Origin: Thalassospiraceae bacterium LMO-JJ14
GTDB lineage: Bacteria > Pseudomonadota > Alphaproteobacteria > Rhodospirillales > Casp-alpha2
Assembly: GCA_021555105.2 (NCBI GenBank)
Contig: CP134604.1
Span: 3,014,501 to 3,078,500, forward strand
DNA: 64,000 bases
Reading direction: 5' to 3'
Shown: positions 41,729-58,111 of the stretch, piece after piece
Numbering within the stretch: position 1 is the first letter of the stretch
How the letters are laid out: each line of letters starts with the position of its first letter
Notes under the pieces: model-generated
What the model was told of the DNA's origin: nothing
Database searches by the model: none
Seen by the model: only the letters and a program-made list of their open reading frames with translations
Position numbers and translations under genes: made by a program

Positions 41729-42031
41729 ACCCTTGTCCCCTTACCCGCGTCACGATCCTGACCACCGGCGAACATATCCGCCGTTTTCCAGGTATTTCCC
41801 CCGGGGAATTCCCTTGGAAAATTTCCTGACGATTTCCTGATAGGCATTATCTGCCGGTCTTTATTAACAAGTGGTGAATCTTTGTTAACGATGTCTGTGA
41901 TTCTTGCCGGTCACAGGTCATCCCCAAGGTTGGGTCACCGACATGATATGATTTATGGTTTGTTAAACCGCATCGCAGAGAGTTAGCCTTCAGCATGGTT
42001 CCGGCTATAAAATATGCACGGGGAGGCACTT
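41729..42031. other. Divergent intergenic region between flgB and the FlhB-C-like gene
   Basis: About 300 bases that must contain promoters for two divergent flagellar operons. I find no good sigma-54 element. There is one TTAA-N7-TGAA (41864-41878), a 7/8 match to the CtrA consensus TTAA-N7-TTAA, and further isolated TTAAC half-sites near 41885 and 41963. Given cckA in the operon, CtrA control is possible but not shown. Confidence 0.5.
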
Positions 42032-42385
42032 TTGGGGCGCACGGAAGACCTGACGCAAACCAATATGAAACCGCCGCCACCCAAGGAACGTGCGGTATCG
42101 GTCGCCTTGAAGGAGCAGCAGGACGGCCACGCGCCTAAGGTCATCGCCGCTGGACGCGGCACGGTTGCCGAGCAGATTCTCGCCCTGGCATTCGCCCATG
42201 GCATAAAGGTTCGTGAAGATGCCGATTTGGCGGAATTGCTGTCGGCGATCGACATAGATAGCGAAATTCCGGTCGAAGCCTTCACCGCAGTCGCTGAAAT
42301 ATTAAGGTACGTGTACCTTGCTAATGCAGATGCCGACAGCAAGGATGCGCCGTCAGCCGAGGACTGGGTCCGAGGTAAGAACTGA
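42032..42385 (+). CDS. FlhB C-terminal-domain-like protein (FhlB/EscU-type)
   Basis: About 118 residues resembling only the cytoplasmic C-terminal domain of FlhB: AVSVALKEQQDGHAPKV, VAEQILALAFAHGIKVRED and IPVEAFTAVAEILRYVYL align with the part after the NPTH cleavage site. There is no NPTH and no membrane segment. Such FhlB-like proteins can replace FlhB-C functions in some bacteria. Start choice is uncertain: an ATG at 42014 has no ribosome site, a TTG at 42032 is preceded by GGGGAGG, and an ATG at 42065 begins the conserved part. It heads the rightward group with fliO and fliP. Confidence 0.75.
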   Translation: MGRTEDLTQTNMKPPPPKERAVSVALKEQQDGHAPKVIAAGRGTVAEQILALAFAHGIKVREDADLAELLSAIDIDSEIPVEAFTAVAEILRYVYLANADADSKDAPSAEDWVRGKN

Positions 42386-43827: not shown

Positions 43828-46800
43828 TCAGTTAAGAGATGAGAGCGGCTCACCGCTCTTGAGCTTGTCACGGTAGGCCGTCAGGAATGTCTCGACTTCC
43901 TGGACCTTCGCCGTCACACGGCCGGGGTCAAGTGTGCCAATCGTTGCCGGCGCTGTTACCAACTCGAAGGCTTCGGCAAACTTGGTCCCTGCCATCGCCG
44001 GACCGTATTCACGCTTGATCTGGCTGACGGCGCGCTCACCACCGGAATTGGTCAGGGCAATGGCATAATTTATCAATCGCGTCGCCTGTACTTCGTTGAC
44101 CGGTAAGTCCGGTTTGGCACCGGATAGCTTGACCAAGAGCCGGAGCGATTTCGCAACTTCGCGCCAGTCGGCACTTTTCCAGAAAATCTCCATACGAAGC
44201 AGTTCAGCCTCTTCACTCAGGTCCGTTTCAAGCAGCGCCAGGGCATCTCCCGACCTGCCAAGCCCCATCAGGAGTTGCGCGCGCAAATGGCGGCGGAGCG
44301 TGACCAGTTCGCCTGGCAAACTTGCCTCATTGGTACCCTGTAGCACCTCAAGACCGAGTTGGAATTCTTCGGCAAGCGAATAGATCAGCGCAAGCCTTGC
44401 GCCAACGCGGGCTTTTTGCTCGCCAACAAGGCGGAACTGCACTTGCGCCTTCAGTATGTCGGCGGCTCTGTCGAGAAGATCCACCTCGACCAGCTTATCG
44501 GCGAGATTGCGAATCATTTCATCGCCGCGTGCCCCGGCAGGCGTCAGCTCCTTGAACTCATTATAGATGGCAATCGCTTTTACAGGATCGATCGCATCAG
44601 CCTGATTTCCGAGGAACAGCGTATTGAAGGTTTCGCTCATCTGCTTCGTGATCTCGGGGGCTTCGGCGAAATCGCGGAAATTGGTCGCCGCTTCCTTCAG
44701 GGTCGACAGACCTTCACGGTAAAAACCTTCATCCAGATACAGCGAACCAAGACGCCGGAGGTTGCTGAATTCCATCCTGTCGCCGCGCCACGCAAATCGG
44801 AGCTTCTCGTATTCTTCGATCGCCTGACGGAAATCGATCCGGCGCAGCTTCAAAAGCATTTCCGTCCGTGCGACCCGGGCACGGGCGCGCGAGGGACGGT
44901 GGTCGCTTTCCAATACTTCTTCCCAAAGCGATATGGCACCGTCAAAATCGCCATCCAGTTCCTTGAGCTTACCCTCGGCATATTTCAGCATCGCCTGCTC
45001 ACTCGGAGTCGGATTCTCCAGATTAAGCGCATCCAGGAACAGCCGTGCCCCCTGTCCATCACCGGTTTCGGCAGCAACCTCGGCGATCAGAATGCCGAGC
45101 GGCATTTTCAACGCCCGCGGATAATCGCGTGCGATGGAGCCGGTGAAACGCAGATCCCTTGCCGAGCCGATACGATCACCCATCATGGCATGCGCAGCGG
45201 CAGCCCAAAGCCTGCCCTCGTCATTTTCGGCGAGGCTCTCATGGTTCAAATCCTCAAGCGCCATTTCATATCGACCGAGCAGGAAATTTGCGCCCCCTCG
45301 CAGAATGCGGACCGAAGGATCGTTCTCGAGCAGAGGGATGTCGTCAATTGCAACACGGATCACGCCCAGCGTTTCCGGCGCAAAGGCGTTGGCGAAAAAG
45401 AACTTTGCGAGTTCAAGCCTGGCGGCGGACTTGCCCCGCTTCGGCGCATCGGCAACCTCGGCCTCATAGCGGCGGCGGTAAACGCGGAGCTGCTCGGTCG
45501 TAGCAAAATATTTCTCTAGTTCCTGAAGTGCGACAACCATCGCCCGCGATGCTGCGAGTTGCGCATGCGCAGCGGCATCATCAGAAACATTGGTGATTGC
45601 AAGACGAACGCCGGAGCTGCCGATTTCCGCCCCCTGGCGCAGCGAACGCACCCTGAGATCGTCGATCACCGGATTGATCACGATGCCCTGCGCCGCCGGC
45701 TGAATACTGAACTGAGGAAAGGTGAATTTACGTCCGACAGCCTGTCCCAGTGGAATCACAGGCACGACGACAAAATTATCGCCGATATTCGGATCGGATA
45801 TCGCAATCGGACGGCCGGGTTCGGGCACTGCGACGAAAACCCGCGCACCGACAGGTGAGTCCGGCTGTGCGGTTACTTCAAGCGCCGCCTGAGGGGCCAT
45901 CGGACGGGGTGCGAAGTCGATCACCCAGGCAAGTCCATCGCGGGCCACCGCGGGATTGTAGCGTTGCGACGTGCGGATACGCAGTACCGTCGCGCTGTCA
46001 TTGGGTATCTGCAGAATTTCAAAAGCCGCTTCGCCGGCCTGGAGTTGCAGCGCCGCCGCATCCACGGTCATCGGCTTGTCGAATACGATCCAGATCGCAC
46101 CGCCCCGGCGGAACGTCGCCGCCGCTACCGGCTCGTCGAAATCAAACCGGAATGCCAGTTGGTCCTGTCCCGGAGTTGCCGTCACACGGGCAGCCGTTGC
46201 CGGTGTGCCACCAACCGGTTCCTGGGCACGGGGTGAAAGCTCTTCTGAAATCGGCTCACTGGCAGCCGTAGCCGCCGTCGTTGGTGCCGCAGGCTGCGGC
46301 GCACCGCTCGGTGTCAGTGCGCGCGGCTGGGTGCTTTCGGCGGCATCTTGCGTCCGCTCAGCCGTCAAGCTGACCGGCGCGCCTTCTCCTCCGGCAGGGG
46401 CTGGAGGAACTTCGGGGGCGGCGGGGGGCGTCTCGACGGTTTCAACCGGAGCAACGGGCTGGGCCGGCGGCGCTGCTTCGTTCGTAGCGGCAGGCGATGG
46501 GGTCGCAGGTGCTTCAGGCGCCGCCGCTGCGACCGTTTCTGCAGGCAAGGCGACAGGATCCAGACTGCCGGATGGTTCACGGACATCGACAACCACTTTC
46601 GCGCCGGACAGGAAATCACGGATATTCGATGTCGACGGCACGGCCAGGGTTACGGTCGTCGTATTCCCGTTAACCGATGTCCGGGCGCCGCCTATCAAAC
46701 GCGCGCCGCCATCGGCAAGCGCACCAAGTTCAATCCGGGCAGGACGCTGAAAACTGATCGTCACAACACCGTTATCGCTACTGGCCTGATAAGGGGTTGC

Positions 46801-47385
46801 ATCTGCAAAATCAAAAACGATTCGTGTGTAATCCGGATGCTCGCCGGTTCGGACCCTGACTTCCGGGGCATCGGCAGGTGCCGCGCCTGTATTGGTTTGT
46901 TGGGCACTGGCCAGCGCACGGCTCTCGCGGACCGGTGCCACGGCGACATCAATAGTCCCCGTTTCATTCGCTGTAACGGGTGCAGGCGGCGGCGCTTTGT
47001 CAGCGACACTCTCGTCTTCAAGCAGTTCGATCGTAACCGCCGTCCCGGTATAGAAAGCGAAAACCTTAACCGGCTTTTCCAGACGGAAACTGACGGAACG
47101 GCCGTCCGCGCCTGCCTGGGGGTCGGCGACGATGCCTTTCAGGCCGTCCGCAATGGACGCAAAGTTACCTTGAACAGGGCGCGAAAACCGGACGTTCAAC
47201 CGCCCGTTTTCAACGCTGTGCTTATAGGCAACAGGCACCTGCCAGGCAAAAGTGATCAGCGAGGATTTGCCCGATTGTTCGGTCCGCACTGGAATACGTT
47301 CAGCTTGGGCATGCGTCACGGCCATGCCGGATAACGCCAGCAGCACCGACATAAAGGCAATGGATTGGATCACCGGGCGCATCAT
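43828..47385 (-). CDS. Large exported protein with AMIN-like and TPR regions
   Basis: A 1185-residue protein with a signal peptide (about residues 1-28, ending AVTHAQA). The region about 30-130 and the YTRIVFDFADATPYQAS region near 185 look like AMIN-type beta domains, which bind peptidoglycan or periplasmic partners. A long Ala/Pro/Thr-rich linker lies near 280-400, followed by another AMIN-like stretch (LAFRFDFDEPVAAATF). The C-terminal half is helical with TPR-like repeats (LFLDALNLENPTPSEQAMLK, EGLSTLKEAATNFRDFAEAP). Its start overlaps the stop of the MotB-like gene by one base, so it is coupled to it. A periplasmic scaffold linked to the flagellar motor is inferred. No exact family name was recognised. 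Confidence 0.75.
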   Translation of the reverse strand: MMRPVIQSIAFMSVLLALSGMAVTHAQAERIPVRTEQSGKSSLITFAWQVPVAYKHSVENGRLNVRFSRPVQGNFASIADGLKGIVADPQAGADGRSVSFRLEKPVKVFAFYTGTAVTIELLEDESVADKAPPPAPVTANETGTIDVAVAPVRESRALASAQQTNTGAAPADAPEVRVRTGEHPDYTRIVFDFADATPYQASSDNGVVTISFQRPARIELGALADGGARLIGGARTSVNGNTTTVTLAVPSTSNIRDFLSGAKVVVDVREPSGSLDPVALPAETVAAAAPEAPATPSPAATNEAAPPAQPVAPVETVETPPAAPEVPPAPAGGEGAPVSLTAERTQDAAESTQPRALTPSGAPQPAAPTTAATAASEPISEELSPRAQEPVGGTPATAARVTATPGQDQLAFRFDFDEPVAAATFRRGGAIWIVFDKPMTVDAAALQLQAGEAAFEILQIPNDSATVLRIRTSQRYNPAVARDGLAWVIDFAPRPMAPQAALEVTAQPDSPVGARVFVAVPEPGRPIAISDPNIGDNFVVVPVIPLGQAVGRKFTFPQFSIQPAAQGIVINPVIDDLRVRSLRQGAEIGSSGVRLAITNVSDDAAAHAQLAASRAMVVALQELEKYFATTEQLRVYRRRYEAEVADAPKRGKSAARLELAKFFFANAFAPETLGVIRVAIDDIPLLENDPSVRILRGGANFLLGRYEMALEDLNHESLAENDEGRLWAAAAHAMMGDRIGSARDLRFTGSIARDYPRALKMPLGILIAEVAAETGDGQGARLFLDALNLENPTPSEQAMLKYAEGKLKELDGDFDGAISLWEEVLESDHRPSRARARVARTEMLLKLRRIDFRQAIEEYEKLRFAWRGDRMEFSNLRRLGSLYLDEGFYREGLSTLKEAATNFRDFAEAPEITKQMSETFNTLFLGNQADAIDPVKAIAIYNEFKELTPAGARGDEMIRNLADKLVEVDLLDRAADILKAQVQFRLVGEQKARVGARLALIYSLAEEFQLGLEVLQGTNEASLPGELVTLRRHLRAQLLMGLGRSGDALALLETDLSEEAELLRMEIFWKSADWREVAKSLRLLVKLSGAKPDLPVNEVQATRLINYAIALTNSGGERAVSQIKREYGPAMAGTKFAEAFELVTAPATIGTLDPGRVTAKVQEVETFLTAYRDKLKSGEPLSSLN

Positions 47386-48110
47386 CAGAACGTCCTCGAT
47401 GTCGGCATGATTATGATATCGACTCTGCGGGCCAGCTTGCGTTTCTCGGCATCGCTGAGCGACGGCAGACGGTTATACTGCGTCGCGGCATAACCCAGTG
47501 CGACGATCTTTTCTTCGTATCCACCTCGCCTGATGGCATTGGCGACGGCCGCCGCCCGGGCGATTGAGAGTTCCCAGTTGGAGGTATAGGCACTGCCGCC
47601 GGGCGGCGCGGGGTCGGTGTGGCCTGTGACGGCGATGCCATTGCCGACATTGTCGAACATGGCACCAAGCGTGTGCATTGCCCCCTGGGCGCGTTCCGTG
47701 ATCACGGCGGCGCCGGGCTCGAACAAAAGATCGCCCGGCAATGCGAGCATCAGCCGATCCTCGAGCCTGACGATCAGAACGTCACGTAACAACGGATCGT
47801 TCGACAGGTTTTCCTCGATCACCCCAGCCAGATAATCCAGATTGACGGCACGGCGCTGAAACAACGTACCGATGTTCAGTTGCGCCGATGGTTTGCTGAC
47901 GGTTTCTTCAATCGCCGGGTTCAAGGTCTGCGACAGTGAATCGATAATCTTGTCCCATTCGTCGATCTTGACGTTCGACATCGCGAACAACAGGACAAAA
48001 AAGGTCAAAAGCAGGGACACCAGATCGGTAAATGTGAGCATCCACATCTTAGTGTTGTGATGCTCAGGTTCTTCGACATGATCAAGGGTCAGCAGCACGT
48101 CGCGTCTCAT
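47385..48110 (-). CDS. MotB-like OmpA-domain protein, second of the pair
   Basis: A 241-residue protein. A single membrane helix contains the stator signature TFTDLVSLLLTFFVLLFAMS, with D29 at the place of the proton-binding aspartate of MotB. The periplasmic part carries an OmpA-type peptidoglycan-binding domain (GHTDPAPPGGSAYTSNWELS, ARAAAVANAI, LARRVDIIIM). No MotA is adjacent. Its ATG overlaps the stop of the upstream MotB-like gene (ATGA), and its stop overlaps the TPR start. Confidence 0.85.
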   Translation of the reverse strand: MRRDVLLTLDHVEEPEHHNTKMWMLTFTDLVSLLLTFFVLLFAMSNVKIDEWDKIIDSLSQTLNPAIEETVSKPSAQLNIGTLFQRRAVNLDYLAGVIEENLSNDPLLRDVLIVRLEDRLMLALPGDLLFEPGAAVITERAQGAMHTLGAMFDNVGNGIAVTGHTDPAPPGGSAYTSNWELSIARAAAVANAIRRGGYEEKIVALGYAATQYNRLPSLSDAEKRKLARRVDIIIMPTSRTF

Positions 48111-48892
48111 GGCTCGCCCCCAGCCTGTCCCGGTGTCTGTCCCGCTGCTTGGCCTGCAGGCTGTTCAACAGTATCTGCCGGCAACGTCCGTTTGCGCATT
48201 TCCTCAAGCGCCTCTTCGAAACGGGTTTCGGTTTCCTCTATACCACGCACCCAGAACCACATGGAGACGTTGCCCTGATCTCCACTCTTGATGCCGACGG
48301 AAACACTGTCTGGCGGTGCACCGCGGCCAACCATTGTGCGCGCCAGTTCTCCGACACGGGCCATATCAAGACCCTGTTGCAAGGGCAGATAAAAATTCCC
48401 TGTCAGCGGCGTACCGATAATGACTTCCATATCCTGGCGCAGGCCCGGTGCCCGGTTCGACAGCGAGGCCACGACACGATCCAGCAACGGCAGCATATCC
48501 TCGCGCACGGAGATCTCATCGGCCTTGAAAAGCGCACTGGTCGGCATCCTCAGTCGCATCAGCCGGCCCGGCTGCACAACTTCGATCTTTTCAATCTGCA
48601 CGGCCGTCGAAAAGGTCGACGTAATTTGTTCCTGGAATGCCTCGCCGGCAATAATGTCGCCGTCCTTGGCATTAAATTCTGTCGCGTCGGAGGTCGGCGG
48701 CAAGACCGTGGTAAAAGTGGACGATAAACTATCCATCACCGCTGTCGATTTGACCGTCTCGAAGGTCGAAATCGACACCAGCATGATAAAGAACGCCAGA
48801 ACCAGAAGGAACAGACCCAAAAAGATCGGCACGATATCCGGCATTTGTACCGGCTCATCGGCGGGAAGTTCCAATTCCAGGTCTTTCAGCAT
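48107..48892 (-). CDS. MotB-like protein, first of the pair, divergent OmpA region
   Basis: About 261 residues. The membrane helix PDIVPIFLGLFLLVLAFFIM has an aspartate (D19) at the position of the MotB proton carrier. The periplasmic part is only loosely like MotB: the usual TDxxP...NWELSxxRA signature is replaced by IGTPLTGNFYLPLQQGLDMA. A Gln/Pro/Gly-rich tail follows. A TTG frame start at 48934 would overlap the cheY-like gene; the ATG at 48892 has a GTGAGG site and follows the cheY stop by 16 bases, so it was chosen. Confidence 0.75.
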   Translation of the reverse strand: MLKDLELELPADEPVQMPDIVPIFLGLFLLVLAFFIMLVSISTFETVKSTAVMDSLSSTFTTVLPPTSDATEFNAKDGDIIAGEAFQEQITSTFSTAVQIEKIEVVQPGRLMRLRMPTSALFKADEISVREDMLPLLDRVVASLSNRAPGLRQDMEVIIGTPLTGNFYLPLQQGLDMARVGELARTMVGRGAPPDSVSVGIKSGDQGNVSMWFWVRGIEETETRFEEALEEMRKRTLPADTVEQPAGQAAGQTPGQAGGEP

Positions 48893-49435: not shown

Positions 49436-50155
49436 CTACAGGCCACCGACGGAGCGCGGCAGTTCCCGCAGCGCCCGCAATTCAACGGTTACCTCACGTG
49501 CGCGATCCGGATTCATCTGCGCCATCACAGGCGCCAGTTTGCGTTCCTTCATCCGCTCCGCAACCTCAAGCAAGGTACCCATTTCCAGATCTTCGAAAAT
49601 GCGCGCAGCATCCTTCGGTTTCATGTTCTCGTAAATCTTGACCAGGCTGCCGAGTTTCTTTTCCTGCTGTTCATCGAACACCTTGATCCGGTCCTCGATA
49701 ACCACGCGCAGGTCTTCAAGCTCTGCAACACGGCGCTCGATCCTGATCTCGGCAGCGCGCAATAATCCTTCGCGGGCTTCAAGCTCGCGCGACTTCGCCG
49801 CCAGCTCATCCCGGCGCTCGGCCAACCGCATCAGGATTTCGATCTCCGCCGGCGTCAGCAGCGTCGGGTCATCGGTAATCAGCTTGCTTGGATCCTGCCG
49901 CACCGTCGTTGCGCCTTCAGCCGGCTCACTCGGCAATGGCTCGACGGCAGGCACTGCAGCCGCCTCCTGCGGTGCTGCGCCATCCGCCGGCTGAGCATTC
50001 GGATCGGTTTGCGCACGCGCTTCGGAAACATTGATCGTGCCGTCGAGAAGGTTGTCGATACCTTCCCAGATATCCCCGACCCTTACTGTCAGCATGAGCG
50101 TGGCAGCAAAGATCGTCAGCGGCAGGAAGCGGATCTTCGAAATGAGTTTTTTCAT
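49436..50155 (-). CDS. motE: MotE-like flagellar motor protein
   Basis: A 239-residue protein. An N-terminal membrane helix (FLPLTIFAATLMLTV) precedes a Pro/Ala-rich linker, a coiled coil (LMRLAERRDELAAKSRELEA and onward), and a C-terminal MgtE-N-like domain (KIYENMKPKDAARIFEDLE, VAERMKERKLAPVMAQMNPD). This order is that of MotE, the chaperone of the periplasmic motility protein MotC in rhizobia. No motC was recognised, so its client here may be another periplasmic protein. Confidence 0.82.
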   Translation of the reverse strand: MKKLISKIRFLPLTIFAATLMLTVRVGDIWEGIDNLLDGTINVSEARAQTDPNAQPADGAAPQEAAAVPAVEPLPSEPAEGATTVRQDPSKLITDDPTLLTPAEIEILMRLAERRDELAAKSRELEAREGLLRAAEIRIERRVAELEDLRVVIEDRIKVFDEQQEKKLGSLVKIYENMKPKDAARIFEDLEMGTLLEVAERMKERKLAPVMAQMNPDRAREVTVELRALRELPRSVGGL

Positions 50156-50176: not shown

Positions 50177-50671
50177 TTAACCGGCATCGCGTAAGGCGCG
50201 AAGCAATTCACGCTCGGCCTCGGAGCGTGGTTCGATCCCGGTGCTGCTGCCCCGGCCGGTTTGCGGTGCCTCGGCCTCACGGGGCTCGACCTCCGGTGCT
50301 TTTCTAGGTTGCGCCCCATTTACGCTAGTCGATGGAGGCTTCGGCACGACACCAAGGCCGTCACGGGCCTCGCGCACCAGATCTTCAAGCCGGTCCGCTG
50401 TCGAACCGCCGCGATCGGCAAGAAAAGAAATATCGTCACGCAGGGTTTGCGCGCGCTGCATCTGGATATCCAGTGCCTGGGCGACGGTCCGCAACTGGTT
50501 CAGGTTTTCTTCGGCGCGCTGTGTCGATTCACCGAAAGTTCTGGCAAGGCTTTCCAGATCCTTCTTGTCTTTACGCAATCTGTTCAGTCGTTTGTTCAGA
50601 ACCATCGCATAACCGATGGTCACCACCAGAAGTACGGCGACGGCGATATCAATAATCAGGGTATAAGGCAT
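50177..50671 (-). CDS. DUF6468 flagellar-cluster membrane protein
   Basis: A 164-residue protein with an N-terminal membrane helix (IIDIAVAVLLVVTIGYAMVL), a basic juxtamembrane segment (NKRLNRLRKDKKDLE) and a coiled-coil middle. A proline- and charge-rich tail ends RELLRALRDAG. It matches the DUF6468 proteins found beside fliM and motE in Rhodospirillales. Function is unknown. It lies 32 bases after fliM and 22 before motE in the same operon. Confidence 0.78.
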   Translation of the reverse strand: MPYTLIIDIAVAVLLVVTIGYAMVLNKRLNRLRKDKKDLESLARTFGESTQRAEENLNQLRTVAQALDIQMQRAQTLRDDISFLADRGGSTADRLEDLVREARDGLGVVPKPPSTSVNGAQPRKAPEVEPREAEAPQTGRGSSTGIEPRSEAERELLRALRDAG

Positions 50672-51887: not shown

Positions 51888-52424
51888 TCATTGAATCAAC
51901 ATTTCCTTGAACAGGATGTCCCTGACCTTAACCGGCGCGACGGCGGCGCGAATCCGGGTCAGAAGTTCCTCGCGAAGCCTGTACATTCCGGCGGAACCGT
52001 CCAGGTCCTCGACCCTTAATTCACGCAGATAAACGTTGAAGTTATCCATCACCCGCGCGATTACCGCTTCGACTTTCGGTTTGTCCTCTTCAAGTTCCAA
52101 CTCCAGGCTGACCTGGATTTTGATGAATCTCGCTTTTCGTCCTGCGGTATTCAGATTCACCGTCAATGACGGCAACTCGTAAAACACCGATGGACCTTTT
52201 TCGCCTTCGACGGTCTCCGACGTATGATCCGGTTCGCCGACAATCATCTTGATGACCGGGTCGAGCAATCCGGTGAAATACGCGCCGGCCAGACCACCCA
52301 GTACCAGAAGAATGACGACAATGATGATGATCAGTAGTTTCTTCTTACCGCCTGACCCTGAAGGCGCGGCTTCCTCGCCTCCGCCATCCGCAGATACTTC
52401 GTCGTCTTCGTCTTCCTCGGCCAT
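51888..52424 (-). CDS. fliL: Flagellar basal body-associated protein FliL
   Basis: About 178 residues. An acidic cytoplasmic N-terminus (MAEEDEDDEVSADGGGEEAA) and basic GGKKK precede one membrane helix (LLIIIIVVILLVLGGLAGAY). The periplasmic stomatin-like FliL domain has YELPSLTVNLNTAG and ARFIKIQVSLELE, and ends VRDILFKEMLIQ. FliL surrounds the stator units. A frame start ten codons upstream exists, but the ATG at 52424 has an AGAGG site and the usual N-terminus. It opens the leftward operon. Confidence 0.93.
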   Translation of the reverse strand: MAEEDEDDEVSADGGGEEAAPSGSGGKKKLLIIIIVVILLVLGGLAGAYFTGLLDPVIKMIVGEPDHTSETVEGEKGPSVFYELPSLTVNLNTAGRKARFIKIQVSLELELEEDKPKVEAVIARVMDNFNVYLRELRVEDLDGSAGMYRLREELLTRIRAAVAPVKVRDILFKEMLIQ

Positions 52425-52859
52425 GAGCCCTCTTCTCCGGAACAGGACCGGCAAAGCCGAACCGTCCCAATCGGTCTATGAACTATAGTCCGCGTTTGGT
52501 TAACAAGTTATTGCCAACGGCGGTTCCGGCCTCTCCGAACTTATTCCCCGCATTTTCGTCAAAGTTTTGCTGAGCAAGGCGTTGCAGCGAATCACAAGAT
52601 ACCAAATAGGGCGTTCAAGGGGCAACAACACTACGACATCTTGCCAATTTAACTCAAATCCGCTCACACGGCATTTCCTGCCCGGTAAAGGATGCACGCC
52701 GAACCTGAATTTACCATGCCTCGCCCTCCCCAAGTTAATGCTAATCCATTGATAATATTACCATTATTAATTTGGCACGGGTGATGCATATGTACCGGCA
52801 AAGGCACACCGGCTGCTTGCCGGACAGATGCCTAAGAACGGGAATAAGGATTGTGGACA
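52425..52859. other. Divergent intergenic region between fliL and flgF
   Basis: About 435 bases with no supported gene. The rightward half carries the sigma-54 element of the flgF operon (52772-52788). The leftward fliL operon promoter is not evident: a TTGGCA read on the minus strand near 52512 lacks a correctly spaced GC. The 52740-52772 part is A+T-rich (GATAATATTACCATTATTAA), a possible activator or IHF-binding area. Confidence 0.6.
52772..52788 (+). promoter_or_regulatory. Sigma-54 promoter of flgF operon
   Basis: TTGGCACGGGTGATGCA: the GG of the -24 element (52774-52775) and the GC of the -12 element (52786-52787) are separated by exactly ten bases, and TGGCACG matches the consensus. 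It lies about 72 bases before the flgF ATG. Sigma-54 control of rod and hook genes is usual in polar-flagellate Proteobacteria. Confidence 0.8.
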
Positions 52860-57104: not shown

Positions 57105-57521
57105 TCAGTCGTCGCGATGCGTCCGTTCCATCCGCTCGTGGCGCTCCTGCGCTTCGAGAGAGAGTGTGGCAATCGGCCTCGCCTCGAGACGTGCGAGAGT
57201 AATCGGTTCATCGGTTTCTTCGCAGTAACCGTAGGACCCGTCCTCAATCCGTTCCAGTGCCTGGTCGATCTTGCTGATCAGCTTGCGGGCCCTGTCACGG
57301 GTCCGAAGCTCAAGCGAACGGTCGGTTTCAATGGCCGCCCGGTCGGCAATATCAGGCTCGACGATCCCGCCTTCCTGCAGTGTCTGCAGGGTTTCATTGG
57401 ATTCCTTAACCAACTCCGCACGCCATCCCAGCAGTTTTTGCCGGAAATATTCCCGCATCCGAGGGTTCATAAACGGTTCTTTGGCGGTCGGCTTGTAATC
57501 GGGAGATAACGTAACGCTCAT
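57105..57521 (-). CDS. dksA: DksA family RNA polymerase-binding protein, degenerate zinc finger
   Basis: A 138-residue protein. The coiled-coil part is MREYFRQKLLGWRAELVKES onward, with the acidic tip ADRAAIETDRSLELRTRDRA. The C-terminal finger region reads GYCEETDEPITLARLEARP, then ATLSLEAQERHERM. Only the first of the four zinc-binding cysteines remains; the others are T, S and A. Alphaproteobacterial DksA is known to lack three of the four cysteines and still work. DksA binds the secondary channel of RNA polymerase and acts with ppGpp. It lies in the order known for Caulobacter, near fliX. Confidence 0.92.
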   Translation of the reverse strand: MSVTLSPDYKPTAKEPFMNPRMREYFRQKLLGWRAELVKESNETLQTLQEGGIVEPDIADRAAIETDRSLELRTRDRARKLISKIDQALERIEDGSYGYCEETDEPITLARLEARPIATLSLEAQERHERMERTHRDD

Positions 57522-57685: not shown

Positions 57686-58111
57686 TTAGCGTGTCAGCTT
57701 GGCAATTTCCACTTCCACCCTGAGTTCAACCTCGCCAATAAGGTCGTTCAGCCTTGGGTCATCGCTGGTCGTCTTTCTCTCGCGGAGTCGCCGCGCCAGG
57801 TCCTGCAATCGATCCTTTGAGACCGAACCCGACAGAACTGAAATACGGATCTGCTCGAGCCTGTCCAAGAGATCATTCCCGTAATTCATCATCAGACCAC
57901 GAGACTTATGATCCGTGGCATCTGCTGTCTGCTGCGCCGCAAGGATCGATGCGACAGGCCCGACCCCGCCGGTTGCCTGTGCCTGGCCACTCTCTTCCGC
58001 ACCCGAAACATCGCGCAGTGCATCGGCGAAACCACCATCATTGCCGGTGGTTTTCTTAGCCTTACGGGTCGAAGAGACCCCTTTTGCCCCGTCGGTTTTG
58101 GTGACTTTCAT
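57686..58111 (-). CDS. fliX: Flagellar assembly regulator FliX
   Basis: A 141-residue protein. The disordered, Lys- and Gly-rich N-terminus is followed by the conserved FliX core: LMMNYGNDLLDRLEQIRISV, then SKDRLQDLARRLRERK and LNDLIGEVELRVEVEIAKL. In Caulobacter, FliX links class II basal-body assembly to activity of the sigma-54 activator FlbD. The two sigma-54 promoters in this window fit that logic, though FlbD itself is not here. Confidence 0.9.
   Translation of the reverse strand: MKVTKTDGAKGVSSTRKAKKTTGNDGGFADALRDVSGAEESGQAQATGGVGPVASILAAQQTADATDHKSRGLMMNYGNDLLDRLEQIRISVLSGSVSKDRLQDLARRLRERKTTSDDPRLNDLIGEVELRVEVEIAKLTR

What the first reader, a model, noticed from the sequence alone, without database searches (positions are those of the whole stretch)
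43828..48892. Tandem MotB-like pair coupled to a giant AMIN/TPR periplasmic protein, without MotA
Three genes overlap by 4 and 1 bases: a divergent MotB-like protein, a more typical MotB-like protein, and a 1185-residue secreted protein with AMIN-like and TPR regions. Both MotB-like helices keep an aspartate at the proton-carrier position, yet no MotA is present. This looks like an extra stator, or a scaffold that builds an additional periplasmic disk around the motor. The first MotB-like protein has lost the usual peptidoglycan-binding signature, so the large AMIN protein may supply wall anchoring in its place. This is the strongest candidate for an under-described system in the window.
Basis: partly seen in the sequence, partly recalled or inferred. 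Interest (0 to 1): 0.6.

Follow-up and report, generated by a model that had tools for sequence, protein, structure and literature searches.

The report
Flagellar stator with two unlike MotBs
Many swimming Alphaproteobacteria carry two different MotB proteins side by side, one of which has lost the residue that carries protons, together with a wall-bound scaffold protein; they are probably parts of a lopsided flagellar motor unit whose third part, MotA, lies in another flagellar operon.

Summary
The three overlapping genes are real. They close the operon fliL-fliM-pflI-motE-cheY-motB1-motB2-motK of an alphaproteobacterial flagellum. (1) Only the second MotB-like protein keeps the proton-carrier Asp. 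In the first the position is Gly/Ser/Ala in all 71 named homologues and in 38 of 39 rows of a class-wide set. (2) MotA is not missing. One unpaired PomA-type motA lies about 79 kb away in fliF-fliG-fliH-fliN-motA-flbD-flhA-flhF, and four motA-motB pairs lie elsewhere. All 16 other MotB1-bearing alphaproteobacterial genomes checked have that same fliN-motA-flbD gene. In five of them the inventory is TolQ, one ordinary MotAB pair, this MotA, MotB1 and MotB2. The AMIN/TPR protein belongs to the known MotK/FssB group and sits near MotE (FlgY/FlbB E-ring family). The new part is the pair: an Asp-less MotB always beside an Asp-bearing MotB, two ancient single-origin clades under purifying selection, found in no paper I could search. 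Most likely MotA pairs with MotB1 and MotB2 to form an asymmetric stator held by MotE/MotK. The heterodimer itself is inference.

The parts
48107..48892 (-). MotB1: divergent MotB without the carrier Asp (G26); TM and plug region plus OmpA-like periplasmic domain that lost the peptidoglycan Asp but keeps the Arg
47385..48110 (-). MotB2: MotB with carrier Asp D29 and OmpA domain
43828..47385 (-). MotK-like periplasmic protein: N-terminal helix (signal-like), AMIN-like beta domains about 30-123, 173-270 and 400-493, further beta region about 500-590, TPR array about 602-1177
   Evidence: context as in PMC10954123
48909..49307 (-). CheY-like single-domain response regulator
   Evidence: PF00072 E 3.3e-27
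49436..50155 (-). MotE/FlgY/FlbB-family (E-ring) protein
   Evidence: PF03448 MgtE_N over its cut-off; NCBIfam collar_FlbB E 9e-7, below its cut-off
50177..50671 (-). DUF6468 protein in the position of pflI
   Evidence: gene order in PMC10954123
50703..51845 (-). fliM
   Evidence: ORF; the name rests on its sequence and on its constant place between fliL and pflI; not scanned against Pfam here
51888..52454 (-). fliL
   Evidence: PF03748 E 4e-19

Best explanation
The three genes encode periplasmic and membrane parts of a flagellar stator whose A subunit is the unpaired PomA-type MotA of the fliF-fliG-fliH-fliN-motA-flbD-flhA-flhF operon. MotB2 is the ion-conducting B subunit. MotB1 is a second, non-conducting B subunit that most likely takes one of the two B places inside the MotA pentamer, giving an asymmetric MotA5-MotB1-MotB2 unit with one carboxylate instead of two. 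MotK, a wall-binding AMIN/TPR protein, and MotE, the E-ring protein, position or activate this unit at the motor, as shown for their counterparts in Cereibacter. Shown here: gene order, conservation, loss of Asp in MotB1 and its retention in MotB2, two ancient clades, co-occurrence with that MotA, MotB fold of the MotB1 periplasmic domain. Inferred: that MotB1 and MotB2 bind this MotA (about 0.8) and that they do so as a heterodimer (about 0.5).
For: Carrier position in MotB1: G33/S28/A10 and no Asp in 71 named loci; D in all MotB2 with a readable motif (67 by script, 2 more by eye). Class-wide: S/G/A in 38 of 39 MotB1 against D in 39 of 39 MotB2, while the FF half of the helix stays conserved in both. 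MotB_plug is found in 64 of 66 MotB1. The MotB1 model's best PDB hit is the H. pylori MotB periplasmic domain. One origin each: MotB1 SH-aLRT 100, MotB2 91. dN/dS 0.05-0.09. MotB1, MotB2 and MotK adjacent in 29 of 29 class-wide loci from 19 families. The flbD-linked MotA is present in 30 of 34 MotB1-bearing relatives (p = 9e-7); the 4 without it also lack flbD, so the operon is missing from those assemblies. It is present in 16 of 16 class-wide genomes. In five genomes (G106, G146, G167, G182, G256) the only MotA without an adjacent MotB is this one and the only MotBs without an adjacent MotA are MotB1 and MotB2. C. sphaeroides MotK and MotE bind MotB2 and are needed for rotation (PMC10954123).
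Against: No interaction or complex structure was tested; complexes could not be modelled with these tools. The same genomes also hold ordinary E. coli-type MotAB, which may be the main stator. Separate MotA5-MotB2 dimers plus a free MotB1 would fit the genetics equally well. Mixed dimers with one Asp-less MotB are reported to be impaired in classical stators (from my own knowledge, not checked here). One lineage (L041) carries Asp again in MotB1.
Confidence: 0.52

Rival explanations
1. MotA5 with a MotB2 homodimer is an ordinary stator. MotB1 is a MotB-derived adaptor that sits outside the MotA ring and links stator, MotE and MotK, much as FliL does.
For: MotB1 lost not only the Asp but also the Trp at the start of the helix and the peptidoglycan Asp. 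It is encoded in the scaffold operon with motE and motK.
Against: The TM half with FF and the plug region stay conserved as in true MotB, and only small residues are allowed at the old Asp site, which fits a helix still packed in the MotA pore.
Confidence: 0.3
2. MotB1 forms Asp-less MotA5-MotB1-dimer units that occupy stator sites without conducting, acting as a brake or spacer.
For: Asp-less B subunit with an intact fold; equal gene dosage with MotB2 in one operon.
Against: Translational coupling with MotB2 in strict one-to-one pairs suggests a joint complex rather than a separately dosed brake.
Confidence: 0.1
3. One reading: a scaffold or extra periplasmic disk formed without MotA.
For: MotK resembles C. 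jejuni PflA of the proximal disk in a Foldseek search (top hit) and sits near a MotE/FlgY-family gene.
Against: A dedicated MotA co-occurs in all adequately assembled genomes; MotB2 keeps Asp, Trp and most of the peptidoglycan-binding signature.
Confidence: 0.05
4. MotB1 is a decaying duplicate without function.
For: Loss of the ion-carrying Asp and of the peptidoglycan-binding Asp.
Against: dN/dS 0.05-0.09, like its neighbours; 11 invariant positions in 66 sequences; kept across about 19 families.
Confidence: 0.02

Closest known systems
Cereibacter sphaeroides Fla2 operon fliL2-pflI-motE-motA2-motK (PMC10954123)
   Same: Same order fliL, pflI, motE ... motK; MotK is a periplasmic AMIN plus TPR protein; MotE and MotK bind MotB2 and are needed for rotation
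   Different: There a motA stands where cheY-motB1-motB2 stand here; C. sphaeroides MotK is 652 aa against 1185 aa; the paper describes no Asp-less MotB
Caulobacter crescentus CC_2058 (FssB) with CC_2059 (PMC7885107, PMC13023049)
   Same: TPR protein with a secretion signal beside a MotE homologue; deletion paralyses the flagellum
   Different: As far as the papers show, no motB pair is described there
Canonical MotA5MotB2 / PomA5PomB2 stators
   Same: MotB fold, TM helix, plug, OmpA-like domain; the MotA is PomA-like
   Different: Two non-identical B genes, one without the ion-carrying Asp; motA in another operon
Campylobacter PflA/PflB proximal disk with FlgY E-ring
   Same: TPR plus beta-sandwich spoke protein and an E-ring protein that hold stators; the Campylobacter periplasmic scaffold chain 9hmf_K is the top Foldseek hit for MotK
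   Different: Homology not proven: the VIA-align second look is filled by generic TPR proteins

Membership tests
MotB stator B subunit (MotB2) | TM helix with ion-carrying Asp | tested here: met
   D29; 67 of 67 by script plus 2 by eye in named loci, 39 of 39 class-wide
MotB stator B subunit (MotB2) | Plug segment and OmpA-like wall-binding domain | tested here: met
   PF13677 58.3 bits and PF00691 36.6 bits, both over cut-off
MotB stator B subunit (MotB1) | TM helix with ion-carrying Asp | tested here: not met
   G26; G/S/A in 71 of 71 named loci
MotB stator B subunit (MotB1) | MotB_plug homology and OmpA-like fold | tested here: met
   64 of 66 members match MotB_plug at E <= 0.01, the window's own below the curated cut-off; Foldseek top hit MotB 3s06 E 1.5e-7
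MotB stator B subunit (MotB1) | Asp/Arg peptidoglycan-binding pair | tested here: not met
   Asp mostly lost (4 D among 39), Arg kept in 38 of 39
MotB stator B subunit (MotB1, MotB2) | Works with a MotA | tested here: inconclusive
   Genomic co-occurrence with the fliN-flbD-linked MotA; binding not testable here
MotK / FssB | Secreted, AMIN-like N terminus and TPR array, in the motE operon | tested here: met
   AMIN-like matches in 21 of 33 members; the window's own copy scores below cut-off
MotK / FssB | Sequence homology to C. sphaeroides MotK | not tested
   MotK sequence not at hand; the paper itself calls members outside its near relatives distant homologues
MotK / FssB | Required for rotation; binds MotE and MotB | not testable with these tools
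   needs experiment
MotE / FlgY / FlbB E-ring protein | MgtE_N-type C-terminal domain | tested here: met
   PF03448 27.2 bits over cut-off 25.9; collar_FlbB E 9e-7 but below that model's cut-off
PflA | Beta-sandwich plus TPR spoke structure | tested here: inconclusive
   Foldseek rank 1 (9hmf_K, E 2.3e-10); not among the rows shown in the second look

The most novel reading that the evidence does not exclude
A class-wide alphaproteobacterial stator, MotA5-MotB1-MotB2, with an obligate heterodimer of B subunits of which only one can carry ions, so that each turn of the MotA ring would use about half the ions of a classical stator and only one B subunit anchors in the usual way.
Probability: 0.45. 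Interest if true: 0.82.

Novelty: new variant of a known kind. Interest (0 to 1): 0.62.

Why it matters
Models of stator rotation rest on two equivalent MotB carboxylates used in turn inside a MotA pentamer. A natural stator with one carboxylate missing, conserved over a whole class and co-inherited with a known MotE/MotK scaffold, would let that model be tested by nature's own mutant, and would explain why these bacteria keep a second MotA inside the fliF operon. It also completes the parts list of a motor type that has been studied so far only in Cereibacter and Caulobacter.

Tried and rejected
MotA-less scaffold: rejected after the fliN-flbD-linked motA was found. The four relatives with MotB1 but without that MotA also lack flbD, so I read them as assembly gaps rather than true absence. 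Asp-bearing MotB1 of L041 as an ancestral intermediate: rejected, it nests within the Asp-less clade. Recent gene conversion from its MotB2: not supported, DNA identity over the helix is only 0.57-0.70. A literature search for an Asp-less or tandem MotB found none, but only open-licence papers are searchable. PflA homology of MotK is not established, as the second-look alignment is dominated by generic TPR proteins. A complex of MotA, MotB1 and MotB2 could not be predicted with single-chain jobs.

Full report
What is there. The three minus-strand ORFs are as described: a 261-aa MotB-like protein (48107-48892), a 241-aa MotB-like protein (47385-48110) and an 1185-aa protein (43828-47385), overlapping by 4 and 1 bases. 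Upstream on the same strand are a CheY-like protein, a protein of the MotE/FlgY/FlbB family, a DUF6468 protein in the place of pflI, fliM and fliL.

The first claim that fails: Asp in both. Aligning 30 orthologues from relatives puts the carrier Asp of MotB2 (D29, FTDLVSLLLTFF) opposite G26 of MotB1 (LFLGLFLLVLAFF); the only Asp of MotB1 near the helix is D19, found only in the closest relatives. In 71 named loci the MotB1 position is G (33), S (28) or A (10), while MotB2 has D in 67 of 67 by script and in 2 more by eye. In a class-wide set of 39 pairs it is S/G/A in 38 and D in one (L041), against D in all 39 MotB2. Profile alignment with solved MotB structures gives the same register. MotB1 has also lost the Trp at the start of the helix and mostly the peptidoglycan-binding Asp, but keeps the matching Arg.

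The second claim that fails: no MotA. The genome holds six MotA/ExbB-type genes. One is followed by a gene whose sequence reads as TolA and looks like tolQ. Four are next to a MotB gene. One stands without a MotB, at C1:3142066-3142869, in fliF-fliG-fliH-fliN-motA-flbD-flhA-flhF, about 79 kb from motB1. Its orthologues (54% identity or more over long matches, against 43% or less for paralogues) are in 37 of 61 relatives, and every sampled copy with flanking sequence lies beside fliN and/or flbD. Of 34 relatives with MotB1, 30 have it; the four without also give no flbD match, so I take the operon to be absent from those assemblies. Counts of genomes were read from the tables by hand; Fisher p = 9e-7. 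In 16 of 16 other alphaproteobacterial genomes with MotB1 the same gene is present between fliN and flbD. In G106, G146, G167, G182 and G256 the stator inventory is TolQ, one ordinary MotA-MotB pair, this MotA, MotB2 and MotB1 (in G167 MotB1 was found by its own profile only).

How wide and how old. In 71 named loci, nearly all Rhodospirillales, including Magnetovibrio blakemorei MV-1 and Terasakiella brassicae, the order fliL-fliM-pflI-motE-cheY-motB1-motB2-motK recurs in most loci whose contig is long enough; in some no cheY was recognised. In 386 genomes of the class 72 have a MotB1 match of at least 50 bits, 69 of them among the 225 with FlhA (p = 4e-15). The 29 best class-wide loci, from 19 families, all have MotB1, MotB2 and MotK side by side. 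On a tree MotB1 and MotB2 are each one clade (SH-aLRT 100 and 91; short search, no bootstrap), so the duplication predates these lineages. dN/dS is 0.05-0.09 for MotB1 and 0.03-0.09 for MotB2 between close relatives, although dS is near or beyond saturation.

Structure. The MotB1 model (mean pLDDT 80.6) has one long helix and an OmpA-like domain whose best PDB matches are H. pylori MotB periplasmic domains. The AMIN/TPR protein model (mean pLDDT 81.8) has an N-terminal helix, three AMIN-like beta domains, a further beta region and a long TPR array. AMIN-like matches are found in 21 of 33 family members. Its top Foldseek hit is chain K of 9hmf, the periplasmic scaffold of the Campylobacter motor, which by its length and TPR content I take to be PflA, but a second aligner is filled by generic TPR proteins, so this stays a lead.

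What is known. C. sphaeroides has fliL-pflI-motE-motA2-motK; MotK and MotE bind each other and MotB2, and both are needed for rotation (PMC10954123). The Caulobacter counterpart CC_2058 (FssB) gives a paralysed flagellum when deleted (PMC7885107). MotE is now placed in the E-ring family with FlgY and FlbB (PMC13023049). So the third gene and its scaffold role are a new member of a known kind. I found no description of the MotB1-MotB2 pair or of an Asp-less flagellar MotB, within the open-licence library searched.

Mechanism. By elimination, MotB1 and MotB2 are the unlinked B subunits for the unlinked MotA. Strict pairing, translational overlap in the window, conserved outer half of the helix and plug, and the limit to small residues at the old Asp site favour MotB1 as a second B subunit in the same MotA pentamer: an asymmetric stator with one carboxylate. 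MotK and MotE would recruit or open it, as in C. sphaeroides. The alternative, a MotB2 homodimer stator with MotB1 as an outside adaptor, cannot be excluded. The same genomes also have an ordinary E. coli-type MotAB, so this may be a second stator.

Noticed in passing
L056:8217-8938 (between cheY and motB1): In 42 of 52 named loci with both genes there is a gap of over 400 bases between cheY and motB1. In the four read it holds a CheZ-like ORF, and the one scanned (L056) matches CheZ (PF04344, 64 bits). It is absent in the window and in its closest relatives L042-L045.
   Followed up: partly
window 42014-42385 +: Small FlhB C-terminal-domain protein (FlhX type, TIGR00789-like) near fliO and fliP, next to an 88-aa ORF without any Pfam or NCBIfam match that is conserved at this place in relatives.
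   Followed up: no
L041:1510-2313 -: One MotB1 has Trp and Asp back in its helix although it nests in the Asp-less clade; DNA identity to its own MotB2 gives no sign of recent conversion.
   Followed up: partly
G000:C1 617k, 1743k, 2360k and 2718k (L145, L147, L144, L146): The genome has four further adjacent motA-motB pairs, including an E. coli-type pair at 2360k; which of them serve the flagellum is unknown.
   Followed up: partly
window 57686-58111 -: FliX, class II flagellar assembly regulator (PF10768), followed downstream on the same strand by a DksA-family gene at 57105-57521.
   Followed up: no
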